DNA of 64,000 bases from a virus: the IMG/VR virus record IMGVR_UViG_3300025030_000013, positions 1 through 64,000 of that record; one strand, 5' to 3'. Below the pieces are notes generated by a model. The model ran no database searches and had not been told where the DNA came from. It saw only the letters and a program-made list of their open reading frames with translations. Below, piece by piece: positions 1 to 52,275 of this stretch. The stretch's first letter is position 1. Every line of letters begins with the position of its first letter. The translations under genes were made by a program, and so were the position numbers.

Positions 1-966
1 AATAAGATGTCACTACATACCACCTACCATGATAATAAGTTCATTGACGACGAATACAAGGCACTCTTGGAGTCATACAAAGAAAAGGACCCTTATTATT
101 ATGACGTATATGCTTTAGGTCAGTGGGGAGTTTTAGGCAAAACCATATTCAATGCTCACAAGGTCAATGAACGTCTAACCCTAGTCCGAGACAGATACCC
201 GGTCAAGCAAGGTTCCTTTACTTATGATTATGTGGGAGAGAGAATAGTAGAGTCATCTATTCGTTGGGTAGAGTCTGACGATGGCTATATAACAATCTAC
301 GAGGATGTCATACCCGGCCTAACCTATGGCATTGGTGGAGACACATCAGGAGATGGATCAGACTACTTCATAGGTCAGGTTATAGACAATACATCAGGTA
401 AGCAGGTAGCGGTACTTAGGCATCAATTTGATGAGGACTTATACGCAAAGCAAATGTACTGCTTGGGTAAATACTTCAACTGGGCACTCATTGGTATTGA
501 GACAAACTACAGCACGTACCCGGTCAAAGAACTTCAACGCCTTGACTACCCAGAACAGTACATTCGAGTAGTAGAGGACACCATAAGCCAAACAACACAA
601 AAGAGGTATGGATTCCAAACAACTAAGCTAACAAGACCAATTATTATTGCCGATTTAGCCTGCATCGTTCGAGAGCAAACGGAGCTTATAAACGACCCTG
701 AAACCCTGAACGAAATGCTAACCTTTGTTCGTAACAAAAAAGGCAGACCCGAAGCAATGCCTGGTGAGCATGACGACCTTATCATTGCCTTAGCAATAGC
801 CTATTACATCAGAGAACAGGGTATTATTAACGGAACGATCGTAGCGGCGGTAGCAAGGAATACGAATACAACAGTTAATCATGACTACCAAAACGGAAAA
901 CATTGGTCGGAGATAGAGGATGAGCAGGACGAAGAAGGAAGTTTCATGAAAGGGTGGACGTTATGA
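1..966 (+). CDS. terL: Terminase large subunit, C-terminal part (5' end outside window)
   Basis: The frame is open from the first base, so the ATPase half lies outside the window and the internal ATG at 7 is not taken as the start. What remains is the RNase H-fold nuclease that cuts concatemers during packaging. Three acidic clusters are visible: GIGGDTSGDGSDYF (about residue 112), IETNYS (about 167) and GEHDDLIIALA near the C-terminus. The N-terminal THSTY/DNKFIDDEY-like stretch is typical of PBSX/P22-type large terminases just after the ATPase domain. The stop overlaps the next ATG. The small subunit at 61928 near the other edge fits a circular map. Confidence 0.9.
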   Translation, partial: NKMSLHTTYHDNKFIDDEYKALLESYKEKDPYYYDVYALGQWGVLGKTIFNAHKVNERLTLVRDRYPVKQGSFTYDYVGERIVESSIRWVESDDGYITIYEDVIPGLTYGIGGDTSGDGSDYFIGQVIDNTSGKQVAVLRHQFDEDLYAKQMYCLGKYFNWALIGIETNYSTYPVKELQRLDYPEQYIRVVEDTISQTTQKRYGFQTTKLTRPIIIADLACIVREQTELINDPETLNEMLTFVRNKKGRPEAMPGEHDDLIIALAIAYYIREQGIINGTIVAAVARNTNTTVNHDYQNGKHWSEIEDEQDEEGSFMKGWTL

Positions 967-33784: not shown

Positions 33785-34369
33785 TTATTTTAAGTACCTT
33801 ATGGGATCGACGGCAACCCCCTCCTTCCTGACCTCAAAGTGTAGGTGCGGACCCGTTGATATACCCGTACTTCCACAACTACCAACTCTTGAACCTGCGA
33901 TTACGGGATAACCAACTTTCACAGATAACCCACTTAGATGACCGTATAAAGTCTCGACTCCATTTCCATGATTCACAATAATCATATTTCCATAAATATC
34001 ATCCCAACAAACCTTAATTACGTCTCCCTCCCAATACGAAGTTACGGGAGTTCCTGCGTTGGCGGCTATATCAATTCCATGATGATCCACGCCATTGAAG
34101 TATTTTGTTATCTTACCTTTCATTGGTAGTTCATTATTACCTTGACCAATATTTGATATTTTTTCAACCGTTCCTTGAATTGAATCTATCCTTGCGTTTA
34201 ATCTTTTTAGGGTTGGAGTAAGGTCCTGCATAGTAGTCAACAACCCCAACATAATAGCCACCATTGCCACTAAATTGGCTAGTTGCTTTCTCTCTACGGC
34301 AATAAGGATTACATAGGCCACAAAAGACGCTACCGCAATAAATAGTATATGAAAAATACATAAAGCCAC
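33785..34369 (-). CDS. Membrane-anchored M23 metallopeptidase
   Basis: 194 residues from GTG 34369. One or two N-terminal TM helices (about 3-45) and a short coiled coil precede an M23/LytM domain with HHGIDIAANAGTPV (about 95) and GPHLHFEVRKEG near the C-terminus, carrying the zinc and catalytic His residues. Such enzymes cut peptidoglycan cross-links. In plasmids they often belong to transfer machinery; here they sit with an FtsK-type ATPase. Confidence 0.82.
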   Translation of the reverse strand: MALCIFHILFIAVASFVAYVILIAVERKQLANLVAMVAIMLGLLTTMQDLTPTLKRLNARIDSIQGTVEKISNIGQGNNELPMKGKITKYFNGVDHHGIDIAANAGTPVTSYWEGDVIKVCWDDIYGNMIIVNHGNGVETLYGHLSGLSVKVGYPVIAGSRVGSCGSTGISTGPHLHFEVRKEGVAVDPIRYLK

Positions 34370-34370
34370 A

Positions 34371-34607
34371 TCACATCACGCCTGCCGTAAATTCGAAGAA
34401 CTTCTTGAGCAACTGCCACGCTACGGCTACTACCGAAAGGATAGCGACAATTATAGTTGCTGTTCTTAACATTCCTGCGACCTGCCCCTTATTTACTGCT
34501 CCTAATATTAACTCCCCTAACCAAGATCCCACACCAAGCATAACTAAGATGATAATTACGAATCCCGGCTTACCTGGTCCGAATACCTCCCTTGCTGCTT
34601 CTGCCAT
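34371..34607 (-). CDS. Small two-TM protein of plasmid transfer type
   Basis: 78 residues: an amphipathic N-terminus and two TM helices (FVIIILVMLGVGSWLGELIL; ATIIVAILSVVAVAWQLL). Size and layout resemble VirB2/TrbC-like or small conjugation-associated membrane proteins, but sequence is not diagnostic. Overlaps the upstream gene, indicating one operon. Confidence 0.6.
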   Translation of the reverse strand: MAEAAREVFGPGKPGFVIIILVMLGVGSWLGELILGAVNKGQVAGMLRTATIIVAILSVVAVAWQLLKKFFEFTAGVM

Positions 34608-35256
34608 TTAAGCATTCCTCCTTTATTTGATCTAACGAATAAACACGAAATTCAAGATTATGGACATTCTCTTTATCAATTTTCTCCTTGATAGACTTAA
34701 CTCTTCCGGTAGTCACCACAATAATAGCAGGGAATCGCTTGGATAAAGGAACCCACCATTGATTCATATAGGCCCCTGAACCAAAAAGATCGTTGTATTT
34801 TTTAACCTTCTTGGAAAAATCATTTCCGCTTTTACCAATATCCATTTCGACGAAATAGAAATACATAGCATCTTGCCATAGATTATTTATCCCCACAAAA
34901 GCATCCGGTCGAATAGTCTTGTAATCCTTAATCTCCCTGTCAAAACAATGAAGTTTTTCCATATTGGAGAGAGTTGTGTTTATCCAAGTGAAGACCCATG
35001 ACACGCCTAGAACATGCTCTAATTGACCCGGCCTACGATCTAGGTAGTAATGATATGGTTCACCTAGTCTTAGTCTGTCACGATTGATTTTAGCGTGTGG
35101 TGGAGTGGACAAGATAGTTAGTCGACGCTGAACTATACGTAGGCAATTACCCTTGAATAAGAGAAGGTGAACCATATCTGTGGTTAAGACTGTTTGGGAT
35201 TCTAGCATGTCGATTAGCTCCCTATCGCGGCGACAACATTTTGCGTGGTTGTTCAA
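34570..35256 (-). CDS. Replication-relaxation family protein
   Basis: 228 residues from TTG 35256. ATG 35210 has a better ribosome site but would lose RDRELIDML. The N-terminal winged helix (RDRELIDMLESQTVLTTDMVHLLLFKGN...VQRRLTIL), then HYYLDRRPGQLEH and a RPDAFVGI...YFYFVEMDIGKS segment, are the hallmarks of the plasmid 'replication-relaxation' family, typically encoded next to FtsK-type ATPases in Gram-positive plasmids. The C-terminal half looks like a nuclease-type fold. Confidence 0.75.
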   Translation of the reverse strand: MNNHAKCCRRDRELIDMLESQTVLTTDMVHLLLFKGNCLRIVQRRLTILSTPPHAKINRDRLRLGEPYHYYLDRRPGQLEHVLGVSWVFTWINTTLSNMEKLHCFDREIKDYKTIRPDAFVGINNLWQDAMYFYFVEMDIGKSGNDFSKKVKKYNDLFGSGAYMNQWWVPLSKRFPAIIVVTTGRVKSIKEKIDKENVHNLEFRVYSLDQIKEECLNGRSSKGGIRTR

Positions 35257-36355
35257 TCTTTATCAACTCGCTTCGTGCAATCATTGGTCTATTGTTATAG
35301 AGTTTTATCGCTTCGTCTGGTTCCAGTAATAATGTTTGGACTTCTAATTTATCAAGACCACATTTATAGATAGCCCTGCCTTTTATTGCAGGGAGGTGTG
35401 CCGCCTCATCGCTGTCTAAGATCATCCTGGAGTTAATTATATCGGCCACAACAAAACATATCCTTCCGAGAAACATTGCCTTTAGATCACCAAACTTTTC
35501 AAACACTTTGGAGGATGGTCTCTGCGTGGCTGCAATTACATGTACTCCAACAAATCTCCCCATCCTTAGAAGCCTCCATAAGCTGTCTTGTGCATCTTCT
35601 GGCAAGTCTGCCCACTCATCTATAATTAGGACTATATAGGGCATCTGGTGGCCTTTCTCATGGTATTTTTTTATCTTAGCGCATGATGCCGACTTTAGAA
35701 TCTTCTTTCGCTTATCCATCTCTTTATTCAGTGACTCGAACAAACCCTTAACCTGACTCATTTCATCTACTACTAAAGCCATTTCATTAAGATAGTCAAA
35801 CTCAGTCGATTTAGGGTCAATGATAATCAAGTTGGTGTCCGGTCTGTAAAGGAGGATTGAGTTTGCGATAACATGGAGTTGATTCGATTTTCCATAGTTC
35901 GTTTCCCCGGCTGTTAGTAGGTGCGGATACTCCACAAGGTCCCTGACTATTAATCCTTTGGCGGATATTCCTATCGGGATAGGTAATTCCATCTTGGAGT
36001 ATTTAGTGTGATCGAAAAGAGAATATGGGTATTTCTTTTTAAGTTCTTCGGTTATTACCTCCATCGTAATTGCCTTGCCATGCTTTTCTATGTGGACGGA
36101 ACCACCTGTAGCGTCTGAAAATAGATTAGTTTTCTTCTGGAAATCAGTAAACCCGGTACCAGGAGGAAGATAAATAGTAAACGTCCACACTTCTCCTTTT
36201 TTTGACTTGTGGATAATCAAGGGTTTAAGCTCATCCTTGGAGTATAAGGCGTTAATGCAATCCTGAACCGCAGCGTGAGCATCATTCCCTTTTCGATGCA
36301 ACCAAAGTGATTTAAGTTGGTCCCTTACTTCCTCTATTGCGTTTTGTTGCTTCAT
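35222..36355 (-). CDS. FtsK/HerA-type DNA translocase ATPase
   Basis: 377 residues. Walker A-like AGETNYGKSNQLH (about residue 152), Walker B YIVLIIDEWADL (about 235), and QRPSSKVFEKFGDLKAMFLGRICFVV match plasmid FtsK/SpoIIIE or TcpA-type coupling ATPases. The usual GxxGSGKS lysine-serine pair is kept as YGKS. The protein would move DNA or couple it to a channel. Neighbours suggest segregation or transfer of the extrachromosomal form. Confidence 0.82.
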   Translation of the reverse strand: MKQQNAIEEVRDQLKSLWLHRKGNDAHAAVQDCINALYSKDELKPLIIHKSKKGEVWTFTIYLPPGTGFTDFQKKTNLFSDATGGSVHIEKHGKAITMEVITEELKKKYPYSLFDHTKYSKMELPIPIGISAKGLIVRDLVEYPHLLTAGETNYGKSNQLHVIANSILLYRPDTNLIIIDPKSTEFDYLNEMALVVDEMSQVKGLFESLNKEMDKRKKILKSASCAKIKKYHEKGHQMPYIVLIIDEWADLPEDAQDSLWRLLRMGRFVGVHVIAATQRPSSKVFEKFGDLKAMFLGRICFVVADIINSRMILDSDEAAHLPAIKGRAIYKCGLDKLEVQTLLLEPDEAIKLYNNRPMIARSELIKIEQPRKMLSPR

Positions 36356-36585: not shown

Positions 36586-36613
36586 AAAAAAGAACCAGAC
36601 ATATTATGTCTGG
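36586..36613 (-). terminator. Terminator after the MerR-like gene (minus strand)
   Basis: CCAGACA-TATTA-TGTCTGG followed on the minus strand by TTCTTTTTT. It separates the rep/MerR-like unit from the ATPase operon. Confidence 0.75.
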
Positions 36614-37155
36614 CTGAATATTCTCCTCCACCACGGATTATTGCGTTGTTGTTGTATCACTTTAATATCATTGAGTCGTTGTATTACCTCATTATCCCTG
36701 TTCTCTACGTCCTTATATCCATCTTCGACCTTCTTGTGGAGTCCTGTAAACCCTTCATTAAACTCTGCCCTCATATCCTCAATTTCCTCTTGTAGTTGAA
36801 TGATAATTCGGTTCTGCTTAGTAATTTCTTCGAGGAGGACGTGGCGGATAGTATGCGCTAAATCTTCTTGTTGCGTTGCCTCTGTGCTGTTGTCCGGTTC
36901 TTGCGTAACAATATCGGTTGTTACGTTAATTCCATACATTTTGTCTAATAGCTCTACTATTTGATCGTGGTCTAATTTCCTGACATATGATGCCTTAATA
37001 ACATTCAATATCTCCACGGTGGATGATTTCTCAAACTTAGTCGTTTTTCCTTCTCCCTGGGTTCGAAAATATTGGAGGTAAACATCCTTGTAATATCGAC
37101 AGGTACTTATGTTTATGTCAGTAAGTTCGGAGCATTGTTTAAGTGTTAGATACAC
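36604..37155 (-). CDS. MerR-like HTH plus coiled-coil plasmid protein
   Basis: 183 residues from GTG 37155. N-terminal MerR-type HTH (YLTLKQCSELTDINISTCRYYKDVY, then FEKSSTVEILNVIKASY), a linker, a coiled coil (ITKQNRIIIQLQEEIEDMRAEFNEGFTGLHKKVEDG) and a C-terminal WWRRIF tip. The layout matches plasmid-borne RacA-like/DUF3967-type proteins. The DnaA box 37159-37167 lies just upstream of its start. A role in segregation or origin binding is plausible. Confidence 0.7.
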   Translation of the reverse strand: MYLTLKQCSELTDINISTCRYYKDVYLQYFRTQGEGKTTKFEKSSTVEILNVIKASYVRKLDHDQIVELLDKMYGINVTTDIVTQEPDNSTEATQQEDLAHTIRHVLLEEITKQNRIIIQLQEEIEDMRAEFNEGFTGLHKKVEDGYKDVENRDNEVIQRLNDIKVIQQQRNNPWWRRIFSQT

Positions 37156-37156
37156 G

Positions 37157-37308
37157 ACTTATGCACATCCTTTCTGTGGATAATATCCTCGCGCATATTA
37201 TTAATAAGATCACTCTTGTAAGAGTATTTCTTGTGGAGAAAGATTCTTTCGGGGTCCCCGTAAAATTCTTTCGGGGAGGGGGAAAGATTATTTCGGGGTT
37301 GTTGATAA
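37157..37308. other. Candidate plasmid replication origin (oriV)
   Basis: This 150-bp gap between rep and the MerR-like gene holds two excellent DnaA boxes: TTATGCACA at 37159-37167 and TTATCCACA (minus strand) at 37175-37183. Weaker ones are at 37232-37240 (TTCTCCACA) and 37300-37308 (TTATCAACA). An AT-rich stretch covers 37180-37210, and three iterons cover 37238-37298. Rep gene, iterons, DnaA boxes and AT-rich DNA in one place are the standard parts of an iteron theta origin. Function is inferred. Confidence 0.75.
37238..37298. repeat. Three 17-bp iterons at 22-bp period
   Basis: GAAAGATTCTTTCGGGG (37238), GTAAAATTCTTTCGGGG (37260) and GAAAGATTATTTCGGGG (37282) begin exactly 22 bp apart, two helical turns, as in iteron plasmids. 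A degenerate fourth copy may start at 37218. They are likely Rep binding sites. Confidence 0.8.
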
Positions 37309-37698
37309 CTATTGTCTTTCCTTCATCATCATTTCGTAGAGGGTATCAGGGCTTATTAATCCTTCTTTTACGGATCGTTCAAGGTGTTCAGTTACCTCCG
37401 AACAAAGGAAATACATTACCTTCTCATCTCCCGGTATCCCGGCCTTTACTATCCATATGTAACCCCGTTCTTCTAGCCACATCATGCCAGCTGTAACGCT
37501 TGGCCTTGATAACTTAGTTAATTTCAGGAGTTGTGGCATGGCTAGGTAGTCCCCAACCTTTTCCCACCCCCAGCATTTCCTTATAAGGGTAAAATAGCAT
37601 TTAAGAGCAGCTAAGTTTGTTATCTCTGGCATAAGTTGGTCGAACACTATGTTTGGCACTTCTGTATAGTTTTTTTGCGGGCGCGGCAATTTGAACAC
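37309..37698 (-). CDS. Rep-like replication initiator, winged-helix domain
   Basis: 129 residues from GTG 37698. YTEVPNIVFDQLMPEITNLAALKCYFTLIRKCWGWEK...AMPQLLKLTKLSRPSVTAGMMWLEERGYI is the winged-helix found at the N-terminus of phage O-type and plasmid RepA_N-type initiators. The protein is short for an initiator (usually more than 200 residues), so a second component may be needed. Its ribosome site GGAG is built into the terminator at 37702-37740, its stop abuts the DnaA box 37300-37308, and iterons follow. Confidence 0.7.
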   Translation of the reverse strand: MFKLPRPQKNYTEVPNIVFDQLMPEITNLAALKCYFTLIRKCWGWEKVGDYLAMPQLLKLTKLSRPSVTAGMMWLEERGYIWIVKAGIPGDEKVMYFLCSEVTEHLERSVKEGLISPDTLYEMMMKERQ

Positions 37699-38151: not shown

Positions 38152-38532
38152 CTATCTTGACTTCATTTTCTTGATTGACTCTAAGAGTTCGCGCAGGAAG
38201 ATGGGGTCTATTTGTTCTATCGCTAAATCACGCGCCAGTACAGCATATGCTAGGCTCTCAGGCTTACTAAAGAATTCTACTATGTCAGATGGGGGGTCGT
38301 ATCCCGTTATCCTAGTAAGTGATTCCAAGGAAACAGCAGCATCGTCCATAAAAAAATAGGTATTGGCATTAAGCGCCTTGGCTATTCTCTCTAATGATTT
38401 CATTGCGGGGCGCTTTTTTTCATTCTCAATATCACTTAAATAAGGGGTAGACAATCCGCATTTTTTAGATAAATCAGAGAGTGTCATTTGTCTCAATTCT
38501 CTAACGTATCTAAACTTTTCTCCGTAATTCAA
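38152..38532 (-). CDS. CI-like phage repressor (XRE HTH)
   Basis: 126 residues from TTG 38532, with GGAGGTG upstream. N-terminal HTH_3/XRE domain (RYVRELRQMTLSDLSKKCGLSTPYLSDIENEKKRPAMKSLERIAKAL, about 8-55) and a C-terminal oligomerisation-like part without the Ser/Lys peptidase dyad of LexA-type repressors. It is divergent from a second XRE gene, forming a lysogeny switch. Without a self-cleavage domain, induction may use the antirepressor at 39005. Confidence 0.82.
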   Translation of the reverse strand: MNYGEKFRYVRELRQMTLSDLSKKCGLSTPYLSDIENEKKRPAMKSLERIAKALNANTYFFMDDAAVSLESLTRITGYDPPSDIVEFFSKPESLAYAVLARDLAIEQIDPIFLRELLESIKKMKSR

Positions 38533-38769
38533 TTACAACACCTCCGATTTATCATATAACTAATATGCTTCGCAACCCTATTACTATACCCCGTTTATTG
38601 ATACCACAACACGGTAAAATATACCTCTTAGCTATATGATAAATTATTTCATAAACTATTGACTATTTATCTATTAGCGTATAGAATATGCGTATGGAAG
38701 AAATTATATACATCTTTTTGTAAAAAAAAAGTTATCTATATGATAAGTGAGGGGGTGAACTTAAACAAA
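38533..38769. promoter_or_regulatory. Lysogeny switch region with three operator candidates
   Basis: The 237-bp gap holds TATATGATAA three times: inverted at 38549-38558, direct at 38633-38642 and 38737-38746. A strong plus promoter, TTGACT-17 bp-TAGAAT (38659-38687), lies between the second and third copies, so a bound repressor would block it. The first copy lies just upstream of the repressor start, suiting autoregulation. Confidence 0.65.
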
Positions 38770-38991
38770 ATGAAGCCTAAGCAAAGCATTGGGGATAATG
38801 TTAGGGACTATCGTAAGAAACGCGGATTAGACCAAAGAGAGCTTGCCCTCATAGCAGAGTTATCAGGTCCGACCATTAGTAATATCGAGAGAAACGTTAA
38901 AATGCCATCCGTTAAAACTCTAGCTAAAATAGCTTACGTTCTCCGTTGCTCGGTAAGCGACTTGATGCAAGATGCAGTAGAAATAAAGTAA
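38770..38991 (+). CDS. Cro-like XRE regulator
   Basis: 73 residues from ATG 38770, with AGGGGGTG 12 bp upstream; a GTG at 38755 is possible. DNVRDYRKKRGLDQRELALIAELSGPTISNIERNVKMPSVKTLAKIAYVL is a full XRE HTH. Divergent from the CI-like gene and first gene of the plus-strand early operon, the usual place of Cro. Confidence 0.78.
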   Translation: MKPKQSIGDNVRDYRKKRGLDQRELALIAELSGPTISNIERNVKMPSVKTLAKIAYVLRCSVSDLMQDAVEIK

Positions 38992-39004: not shown

Positions 39005-39652
39005 GTGAATACTCGTATTGAAACTTGGCTAGGCCACGAAATACGCTTTATCGAAGTTAATCCCAATGATTGGTGGGCTGTAGCAGTTGATATTTGTAAA
39101 GCCTTAGACTTGAAGCAAGTAACAAAAGCGTTAAAAGGTTTGCCATTACCCGGGGTTACTACTAGTAAGGTAGGGGTAGTAACGGGTGAAAGGCGAGATG
39201 GAACAATCTCAACCCAAGAAGTAATGATAAATATCATTGACTCTAAGAATATCTATCGATTGGCTTTCAAAAGTCGAAAGAAAGAAGCAATTCAGTTTCA
39301 AGATTGGGTATTTGATATCCTTGAAACCCTACGAAAATCTGATGGATTAGAAGGTTTCCAAATATTCCGTATGCTCGACAAGGAACATCAACGTGAAGCT
39401 ATGCGCCAACTTAAATTAAATCTAACCAAACCTATCAAGGTTGATTACATCAAAGCCAACACGGTTGCCAATAAAACGGTATCCACGATGTTCGGTTATT
39501 CAAGGATGTTAAAGAAAGATGCAATGACCCCTGAAATGCTTGTACAACGTCAAGAAGTGCTTAATGAAACCGTAAATCTTATGGGAGTAAATGAAAAGTT
39601 TAATTTGGACCTTTCAATTGGTAAGACGGTTAGGGGTAAGTATTTGAATTAG
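39005..39652 (+). CDS. BRO-N-type antirepressor
   Basis: 215 residues from GTG 39005. BRO-N domain (ETWLGHEIRFIEVNPNDWWAVAVDICKALDLKQVTKALKGL...VMINIIDSKNIYRLAFKSRKKEAIQFQDWVFDILETLRK) plus a helical C-terminal part of the KilA/antirepressor type. It likely inactivates the repressor or acts as an early regulator. It is directly downstream of the Cro-like gene. Confidence 0.82.
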   Translation: MNTRIETWLGHEIRFIEVNPNDWWAVAVDICKALDLKQVTKALKGLPLPGVTTSKVGVVTGERRDGTISTQEVMINIIDSKNIYRLAFKSRKKEAIQFQDWVFDILETLRKSDGLEGFQIFRMLDKEHQREAMRQLKLNLTKPIKVDYIKANTVANKTVSTMFGYSRMLKKDAMTPEMLVQRQEVLNETVNLMGVNEKFNLDLSIGKTVRGKYLN

Positions 39653-40061: not shown

Positions 40062-40790
40062 ATGCAAATTGGAGATTTTGTTAAAGGAAAGCCAAGCAAC
40101 GGATATGGCATCACGAACGAGGATATGACGAGGGGTGTTGTGGTTGAGATATTATCCGGTGATCGTATCAAGGTTAAAGTTCTGGATCATGTAGATGGCG
40201 GAACTGGTACGTATGAGGTTAGTGCTGTCGGATTCGAAGTAATAGGACACCAAAAGAAGTTTGACAGGCCAGAAGTCTTAGAACTACTTAAAAACGGATG
40301 CAAGAAAGCAATATTGGATTACGACCTTCGCAGTGCAGACCTTAGCGATGCAGACCTTAGCAGTGCAGACCTTAGCAGTGCAGACCTTCGCGATGCAGAC
40401 CTTCGCGGTGCAAACCTTCGCGGTGCAAACCTTCGCGGTGCAAACCTTCGCGGTGCAAACCTTCGCGGTGCAAACCTTCGCGGTGCAAACCTTCGCGGTG
40501 CAAACCTTCGCGATGCAGACCTTAGCAGTGCAAACCTTCGCGGTGCAGACCTTAGCGGTGCAGACCTTGATTTTTCTTGCCTACCGCTAAGATGTGGAGG
40601 ACTTCGTTGGAAAATTGATAAACGTCTGGCTTGTCAATTGGCATACCACCTCTGCTCAATGCAGTGTGACGATGAGGAATATTTGAAGATGCGGGATTCT
40701 GTTCTCGGTTTTGCGAACCAATTTCACAGGTTTGATGAGTGCGGAAGACTAAATCCTCAAGAGAAAGAAAATAATCAAATTGAAATCTAA
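40062..40790 (+). CDS. Pentapeptide-repeat protein with KOW/SH3-like N-terminus
   Basis: 242 residues. N-terminal SH3-like barrel ([39 protein letters not shown]), then 16 pentapeptide units (A[D/N]L[R/S]x, residues about 88-170) that should form a right-handed quadrilateral beta-helix, then a helical cap ([31 protein letters not shown]) known from phage pentapeptide proteins. Some such helices mimic DNA and bind gyrase; whether this one does is unknown. The repeat DNA is nearly uniform. Confidence 0.85.
40322..40569 (+). repeat. Tandem 15-bp repeats (about 16.5 copies)
   Basis: The unit is GCANACCTTCGCGGT, six consecutive NLRGA copies being identical. Copy number of such an array can change by slippage without frameshift. 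Confidence 0.9.
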
Positions 40791-50125: not shown

Positions 50126-50899
50126 GTGGCAAAAAGAAGGGCTATTTCGCAAAAGTTGAGGTTCGAAATATTTAAACGTGACAGTTTTAAATGTCAATAT
50201 TGTGGAGCATCGGCACCAGAAGTAATACTCCATGTAGATCATATGAAACCAGTTGTTAAAAACGGAACAAATGATATGACCAATTTAATCACTTCTTGTG
50301 AAGGTTGTAATTTTGGTAAGGGCAAGAGAACTTTGAATGACACAACTGCCATCGAAAAACAAAAGGCTCAATTAGACGAACTTAATGAAAGACGTTCCCA
50401 ACTCGAAATGATGATGAAATGGCGCGAGGGACTTTCAAGTATTGAGGAAACTAAATTCAAATATGCACTTGAAAAATGGTCGTATCTTGCCCATCCTTTT
50501 TCACCAACGGAAAGTGGAGAAAAGATATTAAAGATAATTATCAAGAAGTATCCACTGGAAACAGTTCTCGATGCAATAGAAACATCTACTGATCAATACT
50601 TGGAAAAAGATAAGGATGGAAAATTTACTGAAAAATCCGTCGGTAAGGCATTTGATTATATTGAAAAAATATGCGCAAACAAGAAGAGGGAACAGGAAAA
50701 ACCTTATTTAAAAGATTTGTATTACGTACGCGGTATTTTAAAAAACAGGCTTAGTTCTCTGAATATGTGGAAGACATTGGATTTACTTGAGGAAGCCTAT
50801 AGTCATGGGTTTGATTTGGAGGAACTAAAGAAATTGGCAAAAGAAGTTAGGAGTTGGACAGAATTTAGGAACGCTATTGAAGACTTTATTAGTGGGTGA
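50126..50899 (+). CDS. HNH endonuclease
   Basis: 257 residues from GTG 50126. Core HNH: FEIFKRDSFKCQYCGASAPEVILHVDHMKPVVKNGTNDMTNLITSCEGCNFGKGKR (about 12-70), then a long helical C-terminal part. Unlike the first two HNH genes, it has no promoter or terminator that I can see. It lies in front of the replisome organiser and could serve homing or recombination. A GGGGT/ACCCC hairpin precedes it. Confidence 0.85.
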   Translation: MAKRRAISQKLRFEIFKRDSFKCQYCGASAPEVILHVDHMKPVVKNGTNDMTNLITSCEGCNFGKGKRTLNDTTAIEKQKAQLDELNERRSQLEMMMKWREGLSSIEETKFKYALEKWSYLAHPFSPTESGEKILKIIIKKYPLETVLDAIETSTDQYLEKDKDGKFTEKSVGKAFDYIEKICANKKREQEKPYLKDLYYVRGILKNRLSSLNMWKTLDLLEEAYSHGFDLEELKKLAKEVRSWTEFRNAIEDFISG

Positions 50900-50903
50900 T
50901 GTA

Positions 50904-51749
50904 ATGGCCCGTTCGAGAAACATTAAGCCTGGTTTTTTCTTAAATGATGTTCTGTCCGAAATAGAACCACTAGGAAGATTGTTATTCGCCGGATTATGGA
51001 CGATAGCGGATAAGGCTGGAAGGTTAAGGGATAGTCCAAAGAAAATCAAAGCTTGTATTCTTCCTTATGATGATTGTGATGTAAATAATTTGCTAAATGA
51101 ATTGTGGAAAAGGAAATTTATAACTCGTTATGTCGTAGATAACGAGGGATATATCGCTGTGATTAACTGGAAAAAACACCAAAACCCACATATGAAAGAA
51201 GTGGAAAGCGAGATACCTGAACCTGAAGAGGAAGCTTTTTATTCGGAACAAGAACTAAACGAGCATCATACTAGCACCATGCAAGAACAAGTTTTGCACG
51301 AAACTAGCCCTGCTGATTCCCTTAACCTGATTCCCTTAACCCTTAACCTGATTCCTGATTCCAGTACGGGTGCAAGCACCGTACAAAAAAACCCAAAGAA
51401 ATCTAAAGTGGCTGTTATTAAAAAAACATTTGGTGAAAAAGTTCACTTGTCGGAAGCTGAGTATGAAAAGTTAGTCAAGGATAACGGTAAATATGACACG
51501 GATGAAATGATTGCCATCCTTGACAATTGGTATTGCTCTAAGGGAAAGCCTCCAAACAAATCTGATTATCATTGCATGGTCGGAAAAGGATGGGTATTAA
51601 GCAGACTTAACGAAGATCGACAAAAGCAATCCAGTAAACCAAAAACAGGATGGATTAACACCAGAACACCAAACCAATCCATTCAGGACAACATAACGGC
51701 CCAATGGTTATCCATGCACGAGGAGGCAGAAAAGAATGGACAAGCCTGA
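50904..51749 (+). CDS. Replisome organiser / replication initiation protein
   Basis: 281 residues from ATG 50904. The N-terminal winged helix (NIKPGFFLNDVLSEIEPLGRLLFAGLWTIADKAGRLRDSPKKIKA) is shared with phage replisome organiser proteins. A Lys-rich linker and a C-terminal helical part follow. It would melt the phage origin and recruit a helicase loader. A candidate origin with 21-bp repeats lies within the gene (51321-51384). It overlaps the helicase loader gene. Confidence 0.72.
   Translation: MARSRNIKPGFFLNDVLSEIEPLGRLLFAGLWTIADKAGRLRDSPKKIKACILPYDDCDVNNLLNELWKRKFITRYVVDNEGYIAVINWKKHQNPHMKEVESEIPEPEEEAFYSEQELNEHHTSTMQEQVLHETSPADSLNLIPLTLNLIPDSSTGASTVQKNPKKSKVAVIKKTFGEKVHLSEAEYEKLVKDNGKYDTDEMIAILDNWYCSKGKPPNKSDYHCMVGKGWVLSRLNEDRQKQSSKPKTGWINTRTPNQSIQDNITAQWLSMHEEAEKNGQA
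51321..51384. other. Candidate lytic origin within replisome organiser gene
   Basis: CTTAACCTGATTCC occurs at 51321-51334 and 51342-51355 (21-bp period), followed by an inverted repeat GTACGGGTGC...GCACCGTAC at 51364-51384. Origins within initiator genes are known from lambda O and SPP1 gene 38. Confidence 0.5.
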
Positions 51750-52275
51750 GTTTGCTAAATTTTATTCATACATCACGTCAATTACCACCGATACCAAGCC
51801 ATCACCACAAAGGATGGAGGTATACTGGGACGCTCTTAACGACTTACCATTTAACATAGCCATGACCGCAGCTAGAAAAGTAATAGCAACCCTTGAGAAT
51901 CCTTTCCTCCCAATGCCAGCCGTATTCCGAGGGGTGGCGGCACAAATCACAGGACCGAACATCCCGCCAGCACCGGACGCATGGGCAGAGGTTACAAAGT
52001 CAATCCGTAACCTCGGCATATATCGCGAACCGGAAGCGTTGGCAAGTCTTAGTCCTTTAACAAGAAAAGCAGTTGAAGCGATTGGATTTAAAGATATTTG
52101 CCTATCTGAAAACATTGATGTTATACGGGGTCAATTCCGAATGGCGTATGAGGCCTTGGAGAAAAGGGAGATAACGGACGCGAAAACCCCGCAATCTTTA
52201 AAGCAAATCATAGCAACAATGCAAGGGGCAAAGGATTTAGCCGAACCGAAACAGATAGCAAAGATTGACACCTAA
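51736..52275 (+). CDS. Replicative helicase loader, G39P-like
   Basis: 179 residues. EFAKFYSYITSITTDTKPSPQRMEVYWDALNDLPFNIAMTAARKVIATLENPFLPMPAVFRG fits the SPP1 G39P-type helicase loader/inhibitor (PF11417-like). It follows the replisome organiser and would recruit the host or phage helicase to the origin. No phage helicase is seen in the window, so the host DnaB-type helicase is the likely target. Confidence 0.75.
   Translation: MDKPEFAKFYSYITSITTDTKPSPQRMEVYWDALNDLPFNIAMTAARKVIATLENPFLPMPAVFRGVAAQITGPNIPPAPDAWAEVTKSIRNLGIYREPEALASLSPLTRKAVEAIGFKDICLSENIDVIRGQFRMAYEALEKREITDAKTPQSLKQIIATMQGAKDLAEPKQIAKIDT

What the first reader, a model, noticed from the sequence alone, without database searches (positions are those of the whole stretch)
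37157..37308. Iteron-type plasmid origin inside a podovirus-like genome
Three 17-bp repeats start exactly 22 bp apart (37238, 37260, 37282), flanked by DnaA boxes TTATGCACA and TTATCCACA and an AT-rich stretch, beside a winged-helix Rep-like gene. These parts are known from iteron theta plasmids. In this genome they suggest that the prophage is kept as a plasmid.
Basis: partly seen in the sequence, partly recalled or inferred. Interest (0 to 1): 0.88.

Follow-up and report, generated by a model that had tools for sequence, protein, structure and literature searches.

The report
Plasmid-type origin in a metagenomic phage
A complete phage genome from a metagenome carries, beside its ordinary lytic replication genes, a small plasmid-style replication origin with its own one-domain initiator protein, so the dormant phage is probably kept in the cell as a free DNA circle rather than inserted in the host chromosome.

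Summary
The repeats are real: three copies 22 bp apart (37238, 37260, 37282), 45/51 pairwise identities against a maximum of 32 in 1000 shuffles. They lie directly after the stop codon of a 129-aa winged-helix gene related to phage O initiators. The record is a complete circular or permuted 65.6-kb genome (exact 127-bp end overlap). It has lysogeny genes, no detected tyrosine or serine recombinase, and a separate lytic replication module. Eleven aligned relatives keep the plan: rep stop, DnaA box or near-box, three or four palindromic repeats, a conserved TACAA/ATCTTATTAATAATA block. In divergent relatives the repeat sequence has changed completely while its place stays; their Rep proteins differ in the predicted recognition helix. 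Two relatives have ParA near rep. Two complete circular Bacillus carboniphilus plasmids that carry phage genes have the same order: O-like Rep, MerR-like/DUF3967 protein, FtsK, replication-relaxation protein. There Rep has a further C-terminal region and the iterons lie inside its gene. Best reading: a phage-plasmid replicon in which a reduced, DNA-binding-only Rep marks the origin and host DnaA probably loads the helicase. A new variant of a known kind. The plasmid state and Rep binding are inferred, not shown.

The parts
37309..37698 (-). rep: 129-aa winged-helix initiator, O-type DNA-binding domain only
   Evidence: phrog_678 'replication initiation O-like' E 1.3e-10; Pfam Phage_rep_O E 8.6e-5, below its cut-off; AlphaFold model pLDDT 84, winged helix; profile match to the N-terminal domain of longer Reps of Bacillales plasmids, hhalign 96.5%, E 8e-10
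37282..37298 (-). iteron nearest the rep stop (GAAAGATTATTTCGGGG on +)
37260..37276 (-). middle iteron (GTAAAATTCTTTCGGGG on +)
37238..37254 (-). iteron farthest from the rep stop (GAAAGATTCTTTCGGGG on +; core GAAAGATTCTTTC palindromic)
37300..37308 (-). DnaA-box-like site TTATCAACA, one mismatch; TTATCCACA in most close relatives
37194..37236 (-). conserved TACAA...ATCTTATTAATAATA block; probable unwinding element (inferred)
   Evidence: conserved in all 12 aligned loci although the iterons changed
37175..37183 (-). DnaA box TTATCCACA
37159..37167 (+). DnaA box TTATGCACA
36604..37155 (-). MerR-like N-terminus, coiled-coil-like middle, Trp-rich C-terminus; candidate single-protein partition factor (inferred)
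   Evidence: 23-27% identity over about 97% to MerR/DUF3967 proteins of small Bacillales plasmids; same position after rep in two phage-carrying plasmids; alignment
35222..36355 (-). FtsK/SpoIIIE-like ATPase
   Evidence: Pfam E 6.5e-23; phrog_1358 E 4.7e-62
34570..35256 (-). replication-relaxation family protein
   Evidence: PF13814 E 5.1e-8, over cut-off
38152..38532 (-). HTH repressor upstream of rep on the same strand
   Evidence: Pfam HTH_3 E 9.3e-12
38659..38991 (+). divergent Cro-like HTH regulator
   Evidence: Pfam HTH_3 E 3.8e-13
39005..39652 (+). Bro-N antirepressor
   Evidence: Pfam Bro-N E 3.6e-13; phrog_9976 E 2.1e-50
50877..51749 (+). separate lytic replication initiator / replisome organizer
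   Evidence: phrog_16167 E 1.1e-48, phrog_13246 E 4.2e-17
51736..52275 (+). protein of unknown function directly after the lytic initiator; helicase-loader role only suspected
   Evidence: phrog_9804 E 5.7e-29, family of unknown function

Best explanation
This is the plasmid-maintenance replicon of a temperate phage (a phage-plasmid). In the lysogen a 129-aa winged-helix Rep, encoded downstream of the repressor on the same strand, binds as a dimer to three palindromic iterons spaced about two helical turns apart just beyond its own stop codon. Rep and host DnaA, bound at the flanking boxes, open the conserved AT-rich block. Because this Rep lacks the C-terminal region of its longer relatives, the host helicase is probably loaded through DnaA. 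The neighbouring MerR-like coiled-coil protein probably serves segregation. Lytic growth uses the separate initiator at 50877-51749. Shown: sequence anatomy, conservation, synteny with circular phage-carrying plasmids, separate lytic module, no recombinase hit. Inferred: Rep binding, origin activity, DnaA dependence, extrachromosomal lysogeny, the role of the MerR-like protein.
For: Repeats far above chance. Record is circular or permuted by an exact 127-bp end overlap, and the terminase gene is split across the two ends. Eleven aligned relatives keep rep stop, DnaA box (perfect or near), 3-4 repeats and AT block. Repeat sequence changes completely in L030, L012, L013, L033 and L047 while position is kept, and the Rep proteins differ at positions of the predicted recognition helix. 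Two or three perfect DnaA boxes lie within 180 bp after the rep stop in 11 of 13 one-domain loci (some near-identical to each other), against none near the rep of four longer, two-part Reps. In L033 the next genes upstream of rep are ParA and a putative ParB; in L012 a ParA lies 1.5 kb beyond rep. Same order O-like Rep, DUF3967/MerR, FtsK, replication-relaxation in two complete circular B. carboniphilus plasmids with terminase and other phage genes; those also have iterons, inside rep, in 23-24 bp units. No PF00589 or PF00239 match in this genome. Lytic initiator elsewhere.
Against: No ParA and, by inspection of the ORFs, no ParM- or TubZ-sized candidate in this genome. No direct evidence of a plasmid state; the overlap fits either a circular molecule or a permuted linear phage genome. 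Rep itself has no match in 72,556 plasmids. DnaA boxes are not enriched genome-wide. L030 and L013 have no perfect box.
Confidence: 0.8

Rival explanations
1. The iterons and O-like protein are the phage's lytic origin, as in lambda.
For: The protein is O-related, and lambda-type iterons are inverted repeats beside an AT-rich region within the O gene (PMC7466680).
Against: A separate replisome organizer is encoded at 50877-51749 in the early lytic strand. rep lies on the opposite strand in the repressor cassette. B. carboniphilus plasmid unnamed1 shows the same two-initiator layout with DnaB-like helicase and replisome organizer elsewhere. L033 carries rep with ParA in a 153-kb record with no match to the terminase family searched.
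Confidence: 0.1
2. The repeats are a centromere or operator: a TubR/ParR-like winged-helix protein binds them for partition or autoregulation, and the origin is elsewhere.
For: TubR structures are among the (weak) fold matches of the model. The next gene is MerR-like and resembles plasmid proteins.
Against: No ParA match, and no ORF that looks like a ParM or TubZ motor, in this genome (and ORF lists). DnaA boxes and AT block are conserved with the repeats. Sequence relatives are O-type initiators. In L033 and L012 the ParA partition genes sit beside this Rep rather than replacing it.
Confidence: 0.08
3. A relic replicon in a phage that actually integrates by a recombinase not recognised here.
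For: Some relatives (G004, G005) and both B. carboniphilus elements encode tyrosine recombinases.
Against: This genome and the close relatives searched lack matches. Iterons, boxes and an intact rep are conserved across divergent loci, which argues against decay. The recombinases in G004 and G005 are short (182 aa) and may serve multimer resolution (inference).
Confidence: 0.07

Closest known systems
Phage-plasmid-like replicons of Bacillus carboniphilus SaN35-3 (NZ_CP129015.1, 47,351 bp; NZ_CP129014.1, 66,029 bp)
   Same: O-like Rep with palindromic iterons, then a DUF3967/MerR-like protein, later FtsK and replication-relaxation genes; complete circular plasmid records carrying phage genes.
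   Different: Their Rep has a C-terminal region and the iterons lie inside the coding sequence; no perfect DnaA boxes near rep. One has ParM. Both encode tyrosine recombinases. In NZ_CP129014.1 rep is annotated as two overlapping ORFs.
Lambda O / ori-lambda
   Same: O-type DNA-binding domain family, inverted-repeat iterons, adjacent AT-rich region.
   Different: Here the iterons lie outside the gene; there is no C-terminal domain; DnaA boxes flank; a separate lytic initiator exists.
RepA_N theta plasmids (pSK41, pTZ2162)
   Same: Semi-palindromic iterons and a DNA-binding N-terminal domain (PMC7145576). The C-terminal part of the long relative L048 matches plasmid proteins annotated 'replication initiator protein A'.
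   Different: The window Rep gives no Pfam RepA_N match and lacks the C-terminal domain.
Iteron/DnaA plasmids (RK2, P1, F, R6K)
   Same: Iterons, DnaA boxes and an AT-rich region together; iterons of 17-22 bp (PMC4980987).
   Different: Those Rep proteins belong to other winged-helix families (F RepE has two winged-helix domains); here there is one.
Single-protein partition: pSK1 Par, RacA, RocS (for the MerR-like neighbour)
   Same: MerR-type winged HTH, coiled coil, C-terminal tail (PMC11500499).
   Different: Family membership of the window protein not tested; only overall layout compared.

Membership tests
Iteron-type theta replicon | Tandem direct repeats at helical spacing beside a rep gene | tested here: met
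   Three repeats 22 bp apart directly after rep; conserved place in 11 relatives
Iteron-type theta replicon | DnaA box(es) and AT-rich element | tested here: met
   Two perfect and one near box; AT block conserved; box count genome-wide only at chance level
Iteron-type theta replicon | Rep binds the iterons and fires replication | not testable with these tools
   Needs binding and replication assays; only indirect co-change of repeats and recognition-helix residues
Phage-plasmid | Phage structural genes plus plasmid-type replication genes | tested here: met
   Terminase, portal, capsid plus rep-iteron replicon
Phage-plasmid | No chromosomal integration | tested here: inconclusive
   No PF00589 or PF00239 match in G000; lysogen not available
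Phage-plasmid | Recognised partition system | tested here: inconclusive
   No ParA in G000, ParA in three distant relatives; MerR-like candidate only
Phage O-type initiator family | Match to O DNA-binding domain | tested here: met
   phrog_678 E 1.3e-10; Pfam Phage_rep_O E 8.6e-5, below the curated cut-off
Phage O-type initiator family | C-terminal domain and origin inside the gene | tested here: not met
   129 aa only; iterons after the stop codon
RepA_N | Pfam RepA_N match | tested here: not met
   Not among Pfam hits; one structure titled only 'N-terminal domain of DNA binding protein' (4pql) at rank 44 of the fold search is not decisive
TubZRC / ParMRC partition | Motor protein next to the repeat-binding protein | tested here: inconclusive
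   ParA absent by search; ParM and TubZ judged absent only from ORF lists, not by dedicated profile searches

The most novel reading that the evidence does not exclude
A minimal iteron replicon in which the phage O-type initiator has been reduced to its DNA-binding domain, with the iterons displaced outside the gene and helicase loading handed to host DnaA; lineages then switch iteron specificity by changing the recognition helix together with all repeats.
Probability: 0.5. Interest if true: 0.62.

Novelty: new variant of a known kind. Interest (0 to 1): 0.5.

Why it matters
It gives a compact candidate replicon that marks phage-plasmids among uncultured phages without ParA or a known Rep, where the plasmid-collection search with this Rep found nothing. 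The natural series of related Reps with different repeats could let initiator-iteron specificity, and therefore compatibility between co-resident phage-plasmids, be tested directly. The comparison of one-domain Reps with DnaA boxes against two-part Reps without them makes a testable claim about how the helicase is loaded.

Tried and rejected
The Rep of the window found nothing in the plasmid collection and only distant O proteins of Acinetobacter and Pasteurella phages. A PDB profile search gave no significant match, and the fold search gave only generic winged-helix matches, none at E <= 0.001. The replication-relaxation protein had no plasmid match. A class-wide search of 395 genomes around the Bacilli MAG G009 found only that MAG, so the host stays unknown. 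No repeats of the iteron kind were found in the long Reps L053 and L054. The lytic initiator gene holds only one pair of 16-bp repeats. The PF13814 genome search missed the window's own copy, which the protein scan finds, so its negatives are not used. One paper on phage-plasmid groups was not held.

Full report
Observation. The three repeats exist as described: 17-bp copies at 37238, 37260 and 37282, exactly 22 bp apart. Their summed identity of 45/51 compares with a maximum of 32 in 1000 shuffles of the segment and 34 at the next best place in the genome. Two perfect DnaA boxes lie at 37159 and 37175, both on the same side of the repeats; a near-box TTATCAACA lies on the other side at 37300. 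Genome-wide the perfect boxes are no more frequent than chance; what matters is their position and conservation.

The genome. The window is part of a 65,756-bp IMG/VR record. The record's ends share an exact 127-bp repeat, and the large terminase gene is split over the ends. It is therefore a complete circular or circularly permuted genome of about 65.6 kb. Terminase, portal, major head and internal virion proteins are recognisable; the portal's best matches are Paenibacillus phages at about 25% identity. An HTH repressor (38152-38532, -), a divergent Cro-like gene and a Bro-N antirepressor form a lysogeny region. No tyrosine or serine recombinase family match was found.

Two initiators. The early strand encodes a replisome organizer at 50877-51749 followed by a protein of a family of unknown function that might load helicase, with RecT-like and, by inspection, SSB-like genes nearby. 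The repeats belong to a second, opposite-strand cassette: repressor, winged-helix Rep (37309-37698), repeats, MerR-like protein, FtsK-like ATPase, replication-relaxation protein, a small membrane-type protein and an M23 peptidase.

Relatives. Scans of IMG/VR with Rep gave 10 loci, and with the alignment A1, 25. Twelve regions (window plus 11 loci) were aligned from the rep stop. All show a DnaA box or near-box after the stop, three or four repeats, then TACAA and ATCTTATTAATAATA with small changes. In L030 (73% Rep identity), L012 (68%), L013 (66%), L033 (60%) and L047 (61%) the repeat sequence differs: GTAAAGAATCTTTAC, GTCCGGAATTCGGAC, GTGCAGATTTTGCAC, GTCTAGAATTTAGAC, GTCTAAAATTTAGAC. Many single copies are near-perfect 15-bp palindromes where 0.1-0.3 are expected by chance per region. 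Some copies in L012, L033 and L047 are degenerate or displaced, so the spacing is not exactly 22 bp everywhere. The Rep proteins differ along residues 64-70, at the start of the helix predicted at 65-77. I read this as co-change of protein and site; with few lineages it is descriptive, not a statistical test.

Plasmid links. In L033 (153-kb record, no terminase-family match) the next genes upstream of rep are ParA and a putative ParB, with an actin-like protein nearby. L012 has a ParA about 1.5 kb beyond rep; toxin-antitoxin-like gene pairs precede rep in L012 and L013 (by inspection). Using L033's Rep, a weak match led to Bacillus carboniphilus plasmid unnamed2. That 47-kb circular record holds terminase, portal, capsid and tail genes and the order Rep, DUF3967, FtsK, replication-relaxation. 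Its companion plasmid unnamed1 has Rep, MerR, ParM, then FtsK and replication-relaxation, with terminase, DnaB-like helicase and replisome organizer genes elsewhere. Homology between the short Reps and the N-terminal domain of these longer Reps is supported by hhalign (96.5%, E 8e-10). In both plasmids the iterons lie inside the rep coding region (12422-12511 of L048; 6291-6380 of L055). The MerR-like neighbour resembles proteins of small Bacillales plasmids, and its layout recalls single-protein partition factors (PMC11500499); its role here is inferred.

Mechanism. I propose that Rep dimers on the iterons, with DnaA on the boxes, open the AT block, and that DnaA supplies helicase loading because Rep has no C-terminal domain. 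Support for the last step is only the contrast: two or three perfect boxes after rep in 11 of 13 one-domain loci and none near four longer Reps. L030 and L013 have no perfect box, several of the 13 are near-identical, and the two groups are also separated by ancestry, so this is a hypothesis. Iterons with DnaA boxes and an AT-rich region are the standard anatomy of iteron plasmids (PMC4980987), and phage-plasmids carrying both phage and plasmid replication genes are well known, especially in Bacillus and Clostridia (PMC11652158).

Limits. No lysogen, host or read data were available. The overlap does not distinguish a plasmid circle from a permuted linear genome. ParM- and TubZ-type motors were excluded only by looking through ORF lists. 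The genome scan found one bacterial relative, a Bacilli MAG contig (L047); a 395-genome search around it found no other.

Verdict. It is a new variant of a known kind.

Noticed in passing
window 1-127 and record end (L002): Exact 127-bp repeat at the two ends of the 65,756-bp record, with the terminase gene split across them: the genome is complete although it was linearised inside the terminase gene.
   Followed up: yes
window 33785-36355 (-): FtsK-like ATPase, replication-relaxation protein, small membrane-type protein and M23 peptidase in a row; the first two recur together in two Bacillus phage-plasmids and all four in L030. Function unknown, possibly a remnant transfer or segregation module.
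   Followed up: partly
window 51319-51355 (+): Two identical 16-bp repeats 21 bp apart inside the lytic initiator gene; possible lytic origin.
   Followed up: no
L033 1-2677 and 5069-7404: 153-kb IMG/VR record with ParA, actin-like protein and an ATPase with weak similarity to type IV secretion coupling proteins but no match to the terminase family searched; may be a conjugative plasmid filed as a virus.
   Followed up: partly
L055 5819-6917: rep of B. carboniphilus plasmid unnamed1 is annotated as two overlapping ORFs that meet at the iterons; natural split or sequencing frameshift not decided.
   Followed up: no
L012's record (G004) 1950-2894 and 83553-84497: The same terminase match with identical scores at both ends, implying about 6.3 kb of end redundancy and a circular or permuted genome of about 81.6 kb.
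   Followed up: no
window 40062-40790 (+): Protein with a run of pentapeptide-type repeats (ANLRG) near the lysogeny region.
   Followed up: no
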